In this document: positions 13,314 through 34,397 of the stretch, one piece after another
Layout: every line of letters begins with the position of its first letter
Numbering within the stretch: the first letter of the stretch is position 1
Virus record (IMG/VR): IMGVR_UViG_3300032020_000018
Span: 1-43,206 of that record
Direction: 5' to 3' (one strand)
From: a virus
Length of the DNA: 43,206 nucleotides
Made by a program: the position numbers and the translations under genes
Notes under the pieces: model-generated
Told to the model about the DNA's origin: nothing
What the model saw: the letters and a program-made list of their open reading frames with translations, nothing else
The model's database searches: none

Positions 13314-15530
13314 ATGGCTCCAATAACTGACATAGTGCTGACCGACGCGCAGATACGCTACGCGGGGCGGAAGCTGCTGGAGTACCGGCCCCTGCCGGCG
13401 GCGGCGCAGTTCCATGCCTCGCTGGCCAAGAACCGGTGGTTTATCGGCGGCAATAGGTGCCTGGGCGGCGAGCAGGAAATCTATGATCCTGTAGCCGGCA
13501 AGTATCGGCGGGTGGACAGTATCAAAGGGCCGTGGCACGTCCTGGCGTGGGACGGGACGAAGTTGGTCACGTCTGAGGCGTCCGAGCCGTTCACGAAGCC
13601 TGCGCAGTGGATTCTTGATGTGGGTCTGTCAAGTGGAGAGCACATCGCTTGTTCTGGTACTCATCAAGTGTTAACCCTCGACGGCTATCAGCCACTTGGC
13701 GTAATGCGGTCAGGATGCGAGCTTTTCCGTCCGGTGTCCACTTTGGGCAGTGGCCAGAAAGTTCCTCATGTAGATGCTCACCGTTTGTTTGGTACACCGT
13801 CAGATTGTCCGGACGGTTACATTGCCGGCCCTTCCTCCCATGATGAACCACTTCGCCAGGCAATAGAGGGCGACCGAGCATCTTTTCTGCCACGAGGATA
13901 TGCTCGCACACGTACACGTTTCGTGGCTTACGCGCTCTCGGATGACCAGGGCGGTACACCAAAACATAGCCGTGTTTGTCGATTATCCGGCCTCCCTTCC
14001 AGTCAGGATGCCCCGTCCCACTTCGAGGGCCAGTTCTCTGGCACTGGATGCCGTGCTTCTTGCACACCTTCTGGATCAACTTTGCTGACACGCCCAACTG
14101 TTGACCGATCCAAGCTTGGGTCCCGCCCTCGTCAATCCACACCCGGATCTGTTCGACAGGGTAGTCCCAACATTTCAGCTTCTGCCCACGGTTACGAATC
14201 GGCAATCGACGTTCCATGTTCATGTTCCCCTATTCCCATATGTGGCACTATAGCGATAACCAGTCTGGAAGTCAAGAGAAAAGATGTTGTTTGGGATTTT
14301 GAAGTACCTGAATACCACAACTACCTTGCCGCCGGCGTCATTTCGCACAATTCAGGCAAGTCAGAGGCCAATATCGGTTGGGATTTATGCCGCTTCGCCC
14401 TCAACATTCATCCTGTCCGAGTGGCCCCGCCCAAGGCGATCATCTGGGCGGCCACCGACTCCTGGCCAATGGTCGGTAAGCTCTTGTGGGAAGAGAAGAT
14501 ACAGGCTTACATTCCCCCGGGCCGGATCAAGAAGATCATCTGGCACAACCAGGGGGCGGGCATACCCAACGAGGTCCGGCTGTCCAACGGGACCAAAATC
14601 GAGTTCAAGGCATATGAGCAGGGGAGAGACGCCTTCCAGGGCCGGGCAATTGACGCCTTCTACGGTGACGAGCAGTGCCCGTATGATTCGGAGGGCATCT
14701 GGCAGGAGATCCAGGCCCGGCTAATGGACCGCAACGGGTTCACGGCCCAATCCATGACTCCGATCCGGTTTCAGCCGTGGTTGGAGCAGCGGATTCGCAG
14801 CTTGCCGCCGACCGATGCGGTGTTCTACGCCGACTTGGAGGACAACCGCAAGAGCCGCGGCGGGCACGTGGACGACGCCGAGATCGACATGCTGATCGCG
14901 CAATGGCCGCCGGAGATCCAGGCAACGCGGGTCAAGGGCCGGTTTGCGGCGTTTCTGGGCGCCGTCTTCAAGACCTTCAGTCGTGAGGTTCATGTCTGTG
15001 CCCCGTTCAAGGTGCCCCCGGACTGGCCGAAGTGGCGCAGCATTGACTTCGGGTTCGCCAATCCGTTTGTCTGCCTCTGGTTGACCAGGGACCCCGACAA
15101 ACACTGGTACGTCTATGCCGAGCACTATCAGGCCCAGGAATCGATTGCCTTCCATGCCGAGCGGATCAAGGGTCTGAGTGGCAAGGAGCGGTATCGGTGT
15201 ACCTGGGCCGACCATGATGCCCAGGACCGCTACGAGCTGGAGAAGCAGGGTATCAAGACCGTGGCGGCGAAGAAGGATGTCCATGCGGGGATAGAGACCA
15301 TCCAGGCTTGCCTGAAGATTCAGCCTGACTGCCGGCCGAGGTTGCAGGTGTTCAATACTTGTCCGCACACGATTGAGGAAATTCAGGGTTATCGGTGGGC
15401 CGAGGGTGGCGAGAATAAGGACGCCAAGGACGAGCCCTTGAAGGTCCGGGACCACGCCGTGGATTGCGTACGCTACGGACTACTGGGTGCTGAGGGCGGC
15501 TACTACTTCACGGAAAGCGAGTTGAGTTGA
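13314..15530 (+). CDS. Terminase large subunit, interrupted by an intein
   Basis: The 738-residue precursor contains a 298-residue intein (residues 49-346). After splicing, the 440-residue terminase pumps DNA with ATP and cuts it. FIGGNR before the intein and SGKSEANIGWDL after it join to GGNRSGKS, the Walker A motif, so the host protein is inactive until the intein leaves. Walker B is FYGDEQ; the nuclease acids are in SIDFGFANPF, TWADHDAQDR and RDHAVDCVRY. The Ser after the intein (residue 347) supports splicing. The frame stays open through an antisense HNH gene in the intein. The next gene starts at its stop (TGATG). Confidence 0.92.
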   Translation: MAPITDIVLTDAQIRYAGRKLLEYRPLPAAAQFHASLAKNRWFIGGNRCLGGEQEIYDPVAGKYRRVDSIKGPWHVLAWDGTKLVTSEASEPFTKPAQWILDVGLSSGEHIACSGTHQVLTLDGYQPLGVMRSGCELFRPVSTLGSGQKVPHVDAHRLFGTPSDCPDGYIAGPSSHDEPLRQAIEGDRASFLPRGYARTRTRFVAYALSDDQGGTPKHSRVCRLSGLPSSQDAPSHFEGQFSGTGCRASCTPSGSTLLTRPTVDRSKLGSRPRQSTPGSVRQGSPNISASAHGYESAIDVPCSCSPIPICGTIAITSLEVKRKDVVWDFEVPEYHNYLAAGVISHNSGKSEANIGWDLCRFALNIHPVRVAPPKAIIWAATDSWPMVGKLLWEEKIQAYIPPGRIKKIIWHNQGAGIPNEVRLSNGTKIEFKAYEQGRDAFQGRAIDAFYGDEQCPYDSEGIWQEIQARLMDRNGFTAQSMTPIRFQPWLEQRIRSLPPTDAVFYADLEDNRKSRGGHVDDAEIDMLIAQWPPEIQATRVKGRFAAFLGAVFKTFSREVHVCAPFKVPPDWPKWRSIDFGFANPFVCLWLTRDPDKHWYVYAEHYQAQESIAFHAERIKGLSGKERYRCTWADHDAQDRYELEKQGIKTVAAKKDVHAGIETIQACLKIQPDCRPRLQVFNTCPHTIEEIQGYRWAEGGENKDAKDEPLKVRDHAVDCVRYGLLGAEGGYYFTESELS
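13591..14223 (-). CDS. HNH endonuclease, antisense inside the terminase intein
   Basis: This 210-residue protein has a helix-turn-helix N terminus (WIGQQLGVSAKLIQKVCKKH), then the HNH_3-type core: DWKGGR, KHGYVLVYRPGHP, CEHILVAEKMLGRPLLPGEV, VHHGRKGRQCNRPDNLTVY and a final GEH. The His/Asn set of the active site is present. It should cut intein-free terminase genes and so spread the intein. ATG 14223 is close to AGGGG; a second ATG at 14217 has better spacing. Its last 34 residues are antisense to intein block B and look unrelated to the family, so the gene may have extended to a chance stop. Confidence 0.85.
   Translation of the reverse strand: MNMERRLPIRNRGQKLKCWDYPVEQIRVWIDEGGTQAWIGQQLGVSAKLIQKVCKKHGIQCQRTGPRSGTGHPDWKGGRIIDKHGYVLVYRPGHPRARKPRNVYVCEHILVAEKMLGRPLLPGEVVHHGRKGRQCNRPDNLTVYQTNGEHLHEELSGHCPKWTPDGKARILTALRQVADSRRGLTLDEYQNKRCALHLTDPHQESTAQAS
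14247..14275 (-). promoter_or_regulatory. Promoter of the antisense HNH gene
   Basis: Read leftward, TTGACT (14275-14270), 17 bp, TATAGT (14252-14247): two hexamers with five of six consensus bases each at ideal spacing. The -10 is 24 nt from the ATG at 14223. The -35 overlaps the sense codons just before intein block F (EVKRKD), so this promoter is part of the intein coding sequence. Confidence 0.75.
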
Positions 15531-26382: not shown

Positions 26383-26497
26383 GACAATCGAATAGCGGGT
26401 TCTCCTGACGGCCGGCCAGCCTGAGGGGGACGCAAGGCGAATATGAACGGCAGTCAGGTGCCTGACAACTTGACTGCCGTTTTTGTTTGCGCCCGCC
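26383..26497 (+). ncRNA. Repeated three-way-junction RNA element, copy A (before portal)
   Basis: P1 pairs GCGGG (26395-26399) with CCCGC (26492-26496). P2 pairs UUCUCCU (26400-26406) with AGGGGGA (26424-26430). P3 pairs CGGCAGUCAG (26448-26457) with UUGACUGCCG (26470-26479), followed by UUUUUGUUU. Between P2 and P3 is CGCAAGGCGAAUAUGAA, and GACAA before P1; both are shared with copy B at 31817-31933. P3 plus the U-run is a rho-independent terminator. The portal gene starts 22 nt downstream with no ribosome binding site. Confidence 0.65.
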
Positions 26498-26518: not shown

Positions 26519-28582
26519 ATGCCGCAGATCGAAACTGACATTACGCCGGAACGCGAACACGAGATTATGACTCGTGTTACGCACTTCCAAGAGTCCGCAA
26601 TCACCCACAACGCGGATCTCATGGCGAGAATGGAGAAAGCACAGAGGTATACAGCGGGCGATCAATGGGACCCGACTATCAAGGAAGCGAATACCAAGCG
26701 TGCCAAGTTCTCCCTGACCATTCCCCTGATCCGCCCCCAGGTCAAGCAACTCGTGGGCTACTATATCCAGAATCCCAAGGACCCTTCTATCCGTGCCTAC
26801 CGCGGGGGCCTGCGGGTCCTGGCTGACCTGATTACCGCCCTGGTAATGCACGCCACCAAGGACGAGTCCGTGCAATTCGAGATCGCCCAGACTGTGGATG
26901 AGTGCGGGACTACGGGCCGGTCCTACATGGCCATGCTGCTGGACTACGAGCGGGACCCCATGTTTGGCGACCTGGAGATCAAGAAACTCGACTGCTTCGA
27001 TGTCTGGCCCGACCCGGCGTGCAAGGAGTACGACCCGAACAATCGTCACACAGGTGCCAAGTTTATGATCTGGCGGCCGTGGGTGGACAAGGACTGGATC
27101 AAGGCGAAATGGCCGGATAAGGCGCAGCGGCTCGGTATCGTGCAGGACGCCGTGGGCGGCGGCGGTGCCTGGAGTTGGTTCGGCCAGCATGTCAACTGGC
27201 TCGTGACGACGATCAGTGGCAGGCGCATGACCTCTGTGGGCTCGGCCTACGGCGGCAATTCAGAAGAGATGGTATTCTCTCGTTTCAAAGACCGGCTGGA
27301 CCATACCTGGTGGATCGAGTACAAGCCCATCTACTACTGGTACGATCTGCGGGATGAGCGGCCGGAAGCGTGGATTATCGTCACCGATGAGGAAAAGCAG
27401 CAGGCGGAACAGGCGGCGGAACAGTTCCCGGACACCTTCAAGATCGAGGAGTCCATTGCCCCGGTGATGAACCACACCGTTAGCCTCGGCAGCATCTTTC
27501 TGGAGAATAGCTTCGACGAGTTGAACCTGCTCGCGAGCGGCCAGACCTTGTACCCGATTGTGCCCTTTAACTGCTTCTTCAATAATGGCTACATCTCCGG
27601 GGTCGCGGAGGACCTGATTGGTTCGCAGGACTGGGTGAACCTGACCCGGTCCACGGTGGCCAATATCCTCAAGAAGCAGCCGAACCACGGGTACATGATC
27701 GGCGATGACAAAGAAGGCACCTTTAAGGATTGGCTCGCGGAGAACGGTGGCCTCGATGGCGTGGTAATCGACAAGTCGCGTGGCGGTGGTTTTGTTGAAG
27801 CGATCAAGCCCCCTCCCCTGCCGGCGGCGCACGCCCAGATGACGGAACTTGCGAAGGCGGAAATGCGGGAGATCAGCAATCTGCGGACAGAACAGCCGGA
27901 AGGGGCGGCCAAGGAGGGTTGGCAGACGGTCTCCTTGAAGCAGCAGGCGAGTTTGACGGGCGTTTCCCCGGTCCTGAGCAATATCGACTACAGTCTCCAC
28001 CTGCTCTACAACCTGATCGCCACGTCCGTGCGCTCCCTGCGGGTCTACAGCAACGCGGAAATCCGCCGGATCGTGGACGAGAAGGACCTGATCGACCCCC
28101 AGCTCCTTCAGGAAGCGAAACTGGTGGCGGCGCAGGCGTTGGGCGTTCCCTATCCGATCCCGCCGATCCAGATGAGCCAGGTGGTGATGATGCAGATGGA
28201 CCCCGGCGATTCTGAGATGATCCAGAAGAAACTGCACCAATTGGACATGCAGCGGGAGGCCCTGGAGGCTAAGTTGGAAGAGATTGCCAAGCCTTTGGCG
28301 ATCGACGCCCTGATCGACGCCCTGCACAATTCCCGCACGGGCCGGTACGAATGTACGGCAGCCACGGCAACGTCGTCCCCGACCTTCCGCATGGCGCAGT
28401 TCGGACAATTGATGGAACTTCAGGAGTACTTCGCCAAGACGGGCCAGATGCCGATCCCGCAGAAGTACATCATCGACGCGAGCGACCTGCCGAACAAGGA
28501 CGAGATCCTGGAGGACATGGAAATGGCGCAGCAGGCACAACAGAACATGGCTTTGGCGGGGGCGGGGGCGGGAGCGAAATGA
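26519..28582 (+). CDS. Portal protein (P22 gp1-like)
   Basis: This 687-residue protein should form the ring at the head vertex through which DNA passes. Length and start (ITHNADLMARMEKAQRYTAG, then QWDPTIKEANTKRAKFSLTI and RPQVKQLVGYYIQNPKDPSI) fit the P22-type portal family, as does its place between terminase and scaffold. The C-terminal part is helical (KKLHQLDMQREALEAKLEEI) and ends Ala/Gly-rich. ATG 26519 has no ribosome binding site. The next gene overlaps by ATGA. Confidence 0.85.
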   Translation: MPQIETDITPEREHEIMTRVTHFQESAITHNADLMARMEKAQRYTAGDQWDPTIKEANTKRAKFSLTIPLIRPQVKQLVGYYIQNPKDPSIRAYRGGLRVLADLITALVMHATKDESVQFEIAQTVDECGTTGRSYMAMLLDYERDPMFGDLEIKKLDCFDVWPDPACKEYDPNNRHTGAKFMIWRPWVDKDWIKAKWPDKAQRLGIVQDAVGGGGAWSWFGQHVNWLVTTISGRRMTSVGSAYGGNSEEMVFSRFKDRLDHTWWIEYKPIYYWYDLRDERPEAWIIVTDEEKQQAEQAAEQFPDTFKIEESIAPVMNHTVSLGSIFLENSFDELNLLASGQTLYPIVPFNCFFNNGYISGVAEDLIGSQDWVNLTRSTVANILKKQPNHGYMIGDDKEGTFKDWLAENGGLDGVVIDKSRGGGFVEAIKPPPLPAAHAQMTELAKAEMREISNLRTEQPEGAAKEGWQTVSLKQQASLTGVSPVLSNIDYSLHLLYNLIATSVRSLRVYSNAEIRRIVDEKDLIDPQLLQEAKLVAAQALGVPYPIPPIQMSQVVMMQMDPGDSEMIQKKLHQLDMQREALEAKLEEIAKPLAIDALIDALHNSRTGRYECTAATATSSPTFRMAQFGQLMELQEYFAKTGQMPIPQKYIIDASDLPNKDEILEDMEMAQQAQQNMALAGAGAGAK

Positions 28583-31809: not shown

Positions 31810-31816
31810 TTCCTTT

Positions 31817-31933
31817 GACAACTGAATAGGCGTGTTTCCGTTGCGGAGGCATCCAAAGCGGGACGCATAGGCAAATATGAAGCGGCAGTCAGGTGCCTGA
31901 CCATCTGACTGCCGCTTTTGTTTTGCGCACGCC
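31817..31933 (+). ncRNA. Repeated three-way-junction RNA element, copy B (before scaffold)
   Basis: P1 pairs GGCGUG (31829-31834) with CACGCC (31928-31933). P2 pairs UUCCGUU (31836-31842) with AGCGGGA (31857-31863). P3 pairs CGGCAGUCAG (31883-31892) with CUGACUGCCG (31905-31914), followed by UUUUG. The junction CGCAUAGGCAAAUAUGAA matches copy A except for two positions, while P1 and P2 differ in sequence but keep pairing. P3 plus the U-run is a terminator. The 165 nt after it, before the scaffold start, hold two small GC-rich hairpins (about 31947 and 31970) and no gene. Confidence 0.65.
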
Positions 31934-32100
31934 ATTTTTCCGTTTCGCCCGGCGGTTTTCGGGCGAGTCCTCCGGCCTTCGGGACCAACGAGAAGGTCTC
32001 CGCCTTACGGGGTCGCGGTGAGTGCCCCGTGTTCCGCCCATCGGCGGTTTCCGATGTCATCCGGCTTCCTTGCCCGGTGATGTCAAGGAGAACGTGTTTT

Positions 32101-33144
32101 ATGGCAACTGATCTAATGAAACAACTACTTGGAAGTGCGAATGTCACGGAGTCCCCCTATGGGACTCCCGCAGACGGTCCTGCTGCCGACGGTGCCAATG
32201 GTGCGCCGCCAGCGGGTGTGGATACGACGCCGGTCGAGCCGGTCGAGACTCCCGTGGTGGAGTCACCTTATGGCCCGATCCCGCCCATTGAAGAGAAGCC
32301 CGAAGCGGAGCCGACGCCGGAAAAGCCAGTTGAGACGCCCAAGCCTGAAGACTCGCGCGACGCCGCGTTTCGCGCTCTCGCCAAAGAGAAGAACGAGACG
32401 CGCCGGCAACTGCGACAGCTTCAAGCGGAAATGGCGACCTTGAAGGCGGCACAGAACAAGCCGCCCGTCGAGGAACCGGTCCCGGTGCCCGTGCAGCCTA
32501 TCGTGTTCAGCGAGCCGGACCCCGTTGAGGCATACATTGCTCAGAACGGTGGCGATCCCAACCAGGCTCTGCCCTGGCCTGAACAGCAGAAGCATGATGC
32601 GTGGTTCGCCCGCAAGATCGGGGCGGAGCAGGCGGAACGCGAACGGCAGGCGGCAGTCAAACACTCGGAGCAGGATGCACAGCGCAGGAAGCAGGAAGAC
32701 TCCACGGCACAAGCTGCACGGGATGCGACCTACAGCCAGGCGTTCGAGGAACAGGCAAGTGGTCCCCTCTCGGCGGAGAAGATCGGTGACGGTCTCGGCT
32801 TGGACGATGTTTCCGAATTGGCCAATGCCTATCTGACCACTGAGGACAAGCAACTGGTCCGCGCCGCCGGCGAGAAGCATGGTCCGACGCAGATGTGGAA
32901 GACCTACTACGCAGTGTGCGTCAAGCGGTTGGAGGGCAGTGGTACGCCCGAAGAGGCGACTCTCCGCGAGCGCGCCAAAGTCGCCCTGGCCCAGCGCAAG
33001 CCCCCGTCGCCAGCAGGCCCGTCTACGACAACGACACCCGCACCTTCCAAGACAAAAGTGGCACCGACACGTGCGCAGATATTGCAGCCGAACAAGCGGG
33101 GAGTGGCCATCCTCAGACGGATGGGCTTCCCGACCCCGGCTTAG
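32101..33144 (+). CDS. Scaffold-like head assembly protein
   Basis: ATG 32101 behind AAGGAG gives 347 residues. It directly precedes the coat gene and has the make-up of P22-type scaffolds: a long Pro/Glu-rich first third (KPEAEPTPEKPVETPKPEDS), charged helices (FRALAKEKNETRRQLRQLQA) and a basic end (PTRAQILQPNKRGVAILRRM). Scaffolds guide coat assembly and leave the head. The call rests on position and composition more than on motifs. Confidence 0.7.
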   Translation: MATDLMKQLLGSANVTESPYGTPADGPAADGANGAPPAGVDTTPVEPVETPVVESPYGPIPPIEEKPEAEPTPEKPVETPKPEDSRDAAFRALAKEKNETRRQLRQLQAEMATLKAAQNKPPVEEPVPVPVQPIVFSEPDPVEAYIAQNGGDPNQALPWPEQQKHDAWFARKIGAEQAERERQAAVKHSEQDAQRRKQEDSTAQAARDATYSQAFEEQASGPLSAEKIGDGLGLDDVSELANAYLTTEDKQLVRAAGEKHGPTQMWKTYYAVCVKRLEGSGTPEEATLRERAKVALAQRKPPSPAGPSTTTTPAPSKTKVAPTRAQILQPNKRGVAILRRMGFPTPA

Positions 33145-33185
33145 AAGTGCAGGTCTGACCGTAGGTGCCCGAAAGGGTGTACTAC

Positions 33186-34397
33186 ATGGGAGCAACAAGT
33201 TTTCCGACCACCGAACCCCTGGTCCTTGACCAGAGAGCGGACTATTGGTTCCCCTACACGATGCAGCTTTATCGACTGGCTGCCCTGTTGGGTGATACCC
33301 CGAATCACATCGGTCACGTCAATGTGGACTTGACCAAAAAGGCCGGTGAGACCATCTACTTCGCCGGCGGAAATCCCCTCAGTGAAGGTGGCAAAGGCGA
33401 CGACGGCGATACCGGGACCGGGGAGGCGATGGGCCAGCGCAACACGAACATTACGGTCCATGAGAACTCTCACTCCACCTCCAGTGCCGGTCCCATGTCG
33501 CAACAGCGCATGCAGGACTTCCGTACCATCGACCAGTTCCGGCAGCAAGGCGACCGGCACCTGGCTGAATGGCGCGCCGAGCGCATCGAGAACGACTCGA
33601 TCTGCGCCCTGGCCGGCCTCTACAATGAGAACTCCGGCGGCGCGGACATTCAGACGATCACTGAGATCTATCCGACCTCGACCCGCATCTATTTCGGCGG
33701 CCAGAGTATCGGGGCCAGTGCCGCATTGGGCACGAGGTACACCACGGACGCCGGCCTGACTGCCGGCACGCAAGCGAGCAACTACTTCGGCCGCCTGGTC
33801 GTTGAGGAAGTGCTCTCCCTGATGAAGACGGCGACCCCGCGCATGCGGCCGGGCATTTTTGCGCAACCCGATCCCGCGGCGGAAGGCAGTGTGGCGTTTA
33901 AGACTCCCGGCGAGATCATCGGCAATTTCTTCGTCGGCCTCATCAGTCCGCATCACTGGAAGAAGCTGCGGGGCGACTCGCAGTACGCCGACATGCTGGC
34001 GGCAGCCGAGAACCGGGGGCGCTTGCATCCCCTGCTCACGGGCGGCAATTGCATGTGGGAAGGCTGCGTACTGACCGAGTACGACCGCTGCCCGACGAGA
34101 ACGGGTGCCAACGGCACGACCCTGGCCGAGGGGTTTGCCCTGAATGCGGGGCGAACGGCGACCAGCGATGCCTGCGCCAATACGCGCAGTGTGGCCCGGT
34201 CCCTCATCCTGGGCGCTCAGGCATTCCTCTTCGCCTGGGCCATGAAACCGAGTTTCGCCGAGGAGATGATCGACGCCAACAAGCCCAAGATCAAGCAGTC
34301 GGCGATCTACGGCGTCTCGGTGGCCCGGTTCAACTATGCGGGGACCTCAACCCCGATGGCGGAGGAAGGCCGCTACGCGATAGACAGCGAGTACTAA
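33186..34397 (+). CDS. Major capsid protein (N4 gp56 / DUF4043-like)
   Basis: ATG 33186 gives 403 residues; GTG 33165 in frame is less likely. The key region, GPMSQQRMQDFRTIDQFRQQ then HLAEWRAERIENDSICALAG, matches the N4 gp56 / DUF4043 capsid family. FAGGNPLSEGGKGDDGDTG precedes it, and SPHHWKKLRGDSQYADMLAA and NYAGTSTPMAEEGRYAIDSE end the chain. This is the head shell. A stable hairpin follows the gene. Confidence 0.85.
   Translation: MGATSFPTTEPLVLDQRADYWFPYTMQLYRLAALLGDTPNHIGHVNVDLTKKAGETIYFAGGNPLSEGGKGDDGDTGTGEAMGQRNTNITVHENSHSTSSAGPMSQQRMQDFRTIDQFRQQGDRHLAEWRAERIENDSICALAGLYNENSGGADIQTITEIYPTSTRIYFGGQSIGASAALGTRYTTDAGLTAGTQASNYFGRLVVEEVLSLMKTATPRMRPGIFAQPDPAAEGSVAFKTPGEIIGNFFVGLISPHHWKKLRGDSQYADMLAAAENRGRLHPLLTGGNCMWEGCVLTEYDRCPTRTGANGTTLAEGFALNAGRTATSDACANTRSVARSLILGAQAFLFAWAMKPSFAEEMIDANKPKIKQSAIYGVSVARFNYAGTSTPMAEEGRYAIDSEY

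What the first reader, a model, noticed from the sequence alone, without database searches (positions are those of the whole stretch)
26383..26497. Duplicated structured RNA with covariation, copy A before the portal gene
Seen: a 115-nt intergenic element occurs twice. P1 and P2 differ in sequence between copies but stay paired (P2 UUCUCCU/AGGGGGA against UUCCGUU/AGCGGGA, including a G-C to C-G exchange), while the junction GGC-RAAUAUGAA and hairpin P3 are nearly identical. This pattern suggests a conserved RNA. P3 with its U-run is a terminator, but P1 needs sequence beyond it, so read-through is expected. The portal gene 22 nt downstream lacks a ribosome binding site. It does not match any riboswitch I know.
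Basis: partly seen in the sequence, partly recalled or inferred. Interest (0 to 1): 0.78.

Follow-up and report, generated by a model that had tools for sequence, protein, structure and literature searches.

The report
Phage attenuator with host Nus-type motif
A phage carries two copies of a folded RNA stop signal, headed by a short sequence that bacteria use in front of ribosomal RNA genes and riboswitches, just before its portal and capsid genes; an unrelated phage has the same arrangement, so it is probably a shared switch for head-gene expression.

Summary
The element occurs twice: A 26383-26496 before the portal gene, B 31817-31933 before the scaffold/capsid genes. Both fold as a three-way junction, and Rfam has no match. 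A motif search found a third copy (L073) before the capsid genes of an otherwise unrelated phage. This changes which parts count as conserved. P1, P2, P3 and the U-run all persist, with paired changes. 'RAAUAUGAA' is not a conserved junction but the 5' strand of a lower P3 helix that pairs with the U-run. The invariant unpaired parts are GACAANNGAAUAG at the 5' end and CGCA(U)AG between P2 and P3. The 13-mer GACAACUGAAUAG is a host signal: I found it in 16S leaders, a 16S-23S spacer and a 23S leader, and directly 5' of SAM, cobalamin, TPP and c-di-GMP riboswitches in several phyla. Terminator-like hairpins are enriched after it. Best reading: a phage attenuator family in which a Nus-type motif (probably bound by NusA) acts on the terminator that follows and sets read-through into head genes. 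Shown: anatomy, homologue, motif contexts. Inferred: NusA binding and regulation. With three sequences, support for P1/P2 is modest.

The parts
26383..26395 (+). copy A, 5' linear motif GACAATCGAATAG (Nus-type)
   Evidence: identical at 11 of 13 places in A, B and L073; exact 13-mer in rRNA leaders and before riboswitches
26395..26399 (+). copy A, P1 5' strand GCGGG (3' strand CCCGC at 26492-26496)
   Evidence: folds and pair table
26400..26430 (+). copy A, P2 hairpin UUCUCCU...AGGGGGA
26431..26436 (+). copy A, junction P2/P3 CGCAAG
   Evidence: same letters in L073, CGCAUAG in B
26437..26490 (+). copy A, P3 terminator hairpin; lower helix GCGAA/UUUGC, U-run 26480-26488
26492..26496 (+). copy A, P1 3' strand CCCGC, made only on read-through
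26519..28582 (+). portal gene downstream of copy A
   Evidence: phrog_156, E 2.7e-57
31810..31829 (+). copy B, boxA-like TTCCTTT followed by the motif GACAACTGAATAG (31817-31829)
   Evidence: compare GTTCTTTGACAACTGAATAGG about 200 nt before 16S rRNA in L149 and L150
31829..31835 (+). copy B, P1 5' strand GGCGUGU (3' strand GCACGCC at 31927-31933)
31836..31863 (+). copy B, P2 hairpin UUCCGUU...AGCGGGA
31864..31870 (+). copy B, junction P2/P3 CGCAUAG
31871..31926 (+). copy B, P3 terminator hairpin; lower helix GCAAA/UUUGC, U-run 31916-31924
31927..31933 (+). copy B, P1 3' strand GCACGCC
32101..33144 (+). gene in scaffold position downstream of copy B, ATG preceded by AAGGAG
   Evidence: position directly before the capsid gene; no family match
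33165..34397 (+). major capsid gene
   Evidence: phrog_334, Phage_capsid_3

Best explanation
The element is an intercistronic transcription attenuator belonging to a phage RNA family not in Rfam. As RNA polymerase leaves the upstream gene, the nascent RNA first shows the linear motif GACAANNGAAUAG, which most likely recruits NusA (in copy B with a boxA-like stretch, perhaps NusB/S10 too). P2 folds, then the long P3 hairpin followed by the U-run forms a terminator. The recruited Nus factors change how often polymerase stops there. Polymerases that read through enter the portal or the scaffold/capsid genes; in the read-through RNA the 3' strand of P1 closes the three-way junction, which would shape the start of the downstream message. 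The two copies set the output of the two head-gene blocks. Shown: the anatomy, the third homologue before another phage's capsid genes, the motif in rRNA leaders and directly before riboswitches, and enrichment of terminators after it. Inferred: NusA as the reader of the motif, the direction of its effect (more stopping or more read-through), and the purpose.
For: Same layout in three elements of two unrelated phages, always between genes and before head genes; U-run and hairpin kept in all three although P3 letters differ; A and B give the two longest terminator-like stems listed for 24-43 kb. The 13-mer alone: 13 of 44 unbiased genomic sites lie next to an Rfam leader or rRNA (SAM, cobalamin, TPP, L10 leader, rRNA spacer, 23S start), c-di-GMP-I as well; 16S leaders; terminator-like hairpins within 220 nt at 8 of 47 sites against 7 of 385 control windows, p 4e-5. 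rRNA antitermination signals and NusA binding of a boxC-like RNA: PMC10250234, PMC6614801.
Against: Only three members, two of them from one genome. No transcript, termination or binding data. Copy A has TC instead of CT in the middle of the motif, and A and L073 lack the boxA part. That NusA reads this 13-mer rests on similarity to a crystallised M. tuberculosis boxC-like RNA recalled from memory; E. coli boxC is a different string (PMC10250234). P1/P2 support is modest.
Confidence: 0.5

Rival explanations
1. A processive antitermination (nut-like) site: as in rRNA operons, the motif loads Nus factors so that polymerase ignores the P3 terminator and later stops, giving late head-gene transcription, perhaps helped by a phage protein.
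For: The 13-mer is part of rRNA leaders and spacers, where the signal is antitermination; copy B has a boxA-like stretch.
Against: boxA, the part needed for rRNA antitermination (PMC10250234), is missing in A and L073; a nut site would not need its own terminator, P2 and conserved CGCAAG; the motif also precedes riboswitches and bare terminators.
Confidence: 0.2
2. An ordinary strong intrinsic terminator between gene blocks, duplicated by recombination; the rest of the fold is incidental.
For: P3 explains most of the folding energy; P3 letters are nearly the same in A and B; P1/P2 topology arises in 11-15% of shuffles of that stretch.
Against: L073, in an unrelated phage, keeps the 13-mer, GGGACGCAAG, P1 and P2 but not the P3 letters, the reverse of what a plain terminator would keep.
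Confidence: 0.12
3. A riboswitch or protein-binding aptamer: the three-way junction with CGCAAG senses a ligand or a phage head protein and controls the downstream genes.
For: The same 13-mer sits directly before known riboswitch aptamers; the junction letters are kept while helices change.
Against: P1 closes only after the U-run, so a classical aptamer could not form before the termination decision; copy A contains no obvious alternative pairing; no ligand clue from the head genes.
Confidence: 0.12
4. An RNA processing site: the long P3 duplex is cut by RNase III, as at T7 intergenic sites (known from general knowledge), making separate head-gene messages.
For: P3 with its lower helix is a long near-continuous duplex in A and B; intercistronic position.
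Against: The U-run is kept in all three, which a processing site does not need; the 5' motif stays unexplained.
Confidence: 0.06

Closest known systems
rRNA-operon antitermination signal (boxA/boxC region of leaders and spacers)
   Same: GACAACUGAAUAG is found exactly in 16S leaders, a 16S-23S spacer and a 23S leader; copy B also has a boxA-like stretch
   Different: A and L073 lack boxA; the phage RNAs add P1, P2, a conserved junction and a terminator
Transcription-attenuating riboswitch leaders (SAM, cobalamin, TPP, c-di-GMP-I)
   Same: 13-mer directly 5' of a structured RNA, with terminators enriched downstream
   Different: no Rfam aptamer match; the terminator lies inside the closing helix P1
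c-di-GMP-I (GEMM) riboswitch RF01051
   Same: three-way junction with GGGACGCA(A)AG after the second helix
   Different: no match even at E up to 5-10; no GGCAAACC-type segment between P1 and P2
rimP leader terminator (PMC2965389)
   Same: a proposed NusA-linked attenuator built on a conserved terminator
   Different: a GGGc...gCCC stem signature; no larger conserved element reported
suhB 5' UTR boxA (PMC5725501)
   Same: Nus-factor control outside rRNA
   Different: acts through boxA and Rho in E. coli, no intrinsic terminator family of this kind

Membership tests
intrinsic (Rho-independent) terminator | stable hairpin followed at once by a U-run | tested here: met
   A and B; L073 by fold and letters
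intrinsic (Rho-independent) terminator | transcripts end at the U-run | not testable with these tools
   no transcript data
rRNA-type nut site | 13-mer GACAANNGAAUAG as in rRNA leaders | tested here: met
   (copy A deviates at the two middle bases)
rRNA-type nut site | boxA (UCUUUGA-like) just upstream | tested here: not met
   only copy B has a near match (TTCCTTTGA); A and L073 do not
rRNA-type nut site | binding of NusA or NusB/S10 | not testable with these tools
   needs binding assays
c-di-GMP-I riboswitch (RF01051) | covariance-model match | tested here: not met
   absent
any Rfam 15 family | match at the gathering score | tested here: not met
   L073
riboswitch | ligand-binding aptamer that controls an expression platform | not testable with these tools
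   geometry speaks against a classical one: P1 closes after the U-run

The most novel reading that the evidence does not exclude
GACAACUGAAUAG is a widespread NusA-loading signal that bacteria place at the 5' end of rRNA transcripts and of riboswitch-controlled attenuators, and phages with unrelated capsids have captured it to build their own attenuator family that gates portal and capsid expression.
Probability: 0.35. Interest if true: 0.8.

Novelty: new variant of a known kind. Interest (0 to 1): 0.6.

Why it matters
If true, phages set head-gene output with an RNA attenuator that reads a host elongation factor, placed between operon blocks and shared by phages with unrelated capsids. It also points to a linear motif common to rRNA leaders and several riboswitch classes, which would make it directly testable whether transcriptional riboswitches carry a dedicated Nus-factor loading site.

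Tried and rejected
Scan with ACGCA..GGCRAATATGAA: 53 viral loci, no further member on inspection, most of them look like coding sequence; that motif is P3a, not a family feature. P3-arm scans found none or chance hits. TerL relatives (65-68% identical) show no portal match and no element; of the window's proteins only TerL and the next gene match all four. Portal and capsid have no close relatives in IMG/VR, and the portal none in the phage collection at E 1e-5. blastn of the element against phage records: nothing convincing. c-di-GMP-I membership, suggested by GGGACGCAAG, was tested and rejected. A promoter reading of the 13-mer was set aside: no sigma-70-like site at either copy on the + strand, and the motif also sits in a 16S-23S spacer. 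A covariance model was not built: the MAFFT alignment of three sequences misplaces the P2 strands and the one attempt had a structure of the wrong length, so pairs were counted by hand placement. SSU rRNA search in four genomes gave nothing; the rRNA context was shown with other loci. The NusA-RNA crystal paper is not in the library.

Full report
Check of the observation. The element lies at 26383-26497 and again at 31817-31933. Both fold as a three-way junction, with energies far below dinucleotide shuffles (z -4.9 and -5.9). P3 dominates these scores: the P3 stems have 15 and 17 pairs and run straight into the U-run. Rfam 15 has no match at gathering scores, and permissive scans give only weak matches, mostly to generic microRNA hairpins.

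Surroundings. Copy A follows the upstream ORF (ending 26357) and precedes the portal gene (phrog_156), which has no purine tract before its ATG. Copy B starts 7 nt after the stop codon of the upstream ORF (ending 31809) and is followed by a 167-nt hairpin-rich leader, a gene in scaffold position (ATG 32101 with AAGGAG) and the major capsid gene. The window is an IMG/VR virus record.

A third member. A scan for GACAANNGAATAG followed by GGGACGCA found L073 (contig IMGVR_UViG_3300033064_000447): GACAACTGAATAG, P1 GGGU/GCCC, P2 UCCCGC/GCGGGA, CGCAAG, then a long hairpin GGGGCUUCC...GGAGCCCC with UUUUGCUU. The 13-mer overlaps the end of the upstream gene. Downstream are a 90-aa gene, a 382-aa gene in scaffold position and a capsid gene of another family (phrog_267; Phage_capsid_4; the window has phrog_334 and Phage_capsid_3). 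The 8.4-kb contig has no meaningful protein similarity to the window. L073 was chosen by letters alone, so its fold is an independent test.

What is conserved. Over A, B and L073, P1 has 3 of 4 compared columns changed on both sides, P2 has 1 of 6 on both sides and 3 on one side, P3a 3 of 5 and P3b 4 of 8 on both sides, and no compared pair is broken. The helices were placed by hand and three sequences do not give a significance test. A shuffle test puts the joint chance of the shared topology between about 5e-5 and 2e-3. The unpaired letters that persist are GACAANNGAAUAG and CGCA(U)AG.

The 13-mer is a host signal. A scan of one genome per species for the 13-mer plus GACGCA(N)AG gave 13 loci, five of them c-di-GMP-I riboswitches; that scan was biased by the shared GACGCAAAG. 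Sampling the 13-mer alone was not. In 117 genomes of the class of a Geomonas species it occurs 13 times against 5 for the reversed string; in 43 genomes of the phylum of an Armatimonadetes MAG 4 against 0; in 251 genomes of the phylum of a Chloroflexota MAG it occurs in 31 genomes against 5 reversed hits. Leaving out the seed loci, 13 of 44 sites have an Rfam leader or rRNA next to them: SAM (L139, L144-L146, L154, L163, L179), cobalamin (L133, L160), TPP (L167), L10 leader (L173), a 16S-23S spacer (L168) and the start of 23S (L169). L144-L146 are near-identical and should count as one. The gap to SAM and TPP aptamers is 2-9 nt; the cobalamin and L10 models overlap the motif. In two Acidobacteriota-phylum loci GTTCTTTGACAACTGAATAGG lies about 200 nt before 16S. 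Terminator-like hairpins follow within 220 nt at 8 of 47 sites against 7 of 385 control windows (p 4e-5).

Mechanism. In rRNA leaders this region is the antitermination signal, boxA being read by NusB/S10 and a boxC-like RNA being bound by NusA (PMC10250234; PMC6614801). From memory, the RNA in the M. tuberculosis NusA complex is GAACUCAAUAG, close to CAACUGAAUAG; this is a lead, not a test, and E. coli boxC is a different string. Since the motif recurs before riboswitches and before bare terminator-like hairpins (L137, L158), its common task is probably Nus-factor control of a nearby terminator. P1 can close only after read-through, so it cannot decide termination; it may shape the start of the read-through message. 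I commit to an attenuator with Nus-dependent read-through (0.5), with processive antitermination as the main rival (0.2).

Comparison. It works like an attenuator with a Nus-type recognition motif. It is not a member of any Rfam family, nor of the c-di-GMP-I riboswitches, although it shares GGGACGCAAG and a three-way layout with them. No paper in the searched library prints GACAACTGAATAG, and searches linking NusA, boxA and riboswitches found no report of such a motif; absence from an open-access library is weak evidence. Nus-factor control outside rRNA is known for suhB (PMC5725501).

Noticed in passing
L133, L139, L144-L146, L154, L160, L163, L167, L173, L179: GACAACTGAATAG lies directly 5' of SAM, cobalamin and TPP riboswitches and an L10 leader in several phyla; I found no report of this association.
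   Followed up: partly
L171, L172, L174, L175, just after the 13-mer at about 1501 (- strand): Four Chloroflexota-phylum loci share an unnamed leader: 13-mer, then GGGCTCAGCACGCA inside a short helix, then a hairpin that is often terminator-like; no Rfam match.
   Followed up: no
genome G487, L178: One genome holds 17 copies of the 13-mer, several as divergent pairs 99 nt apart, which looks like a repeat or mobile element that carries the motif.
   Followed up: no
window 31934-32100: The stretch between copy B and the scaffold-position gene is rich in hairpins (z -2.1).
   Followed up: partly
window 13314-15530: The terminase large subunit carries a probable intein (PF14890, below the curated cut-off); it interrupts the Walker A motif after GGNR, and viral relatives match on both sides of it.
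   Followed up: no
L047 1867-2110 (- strand): A viral contig with two tandem structured repeats that hold ACGCAGGGCAAATATGAATATTTGCTCCTG; no 5' motif, probably unrelated.
   Followed up: no
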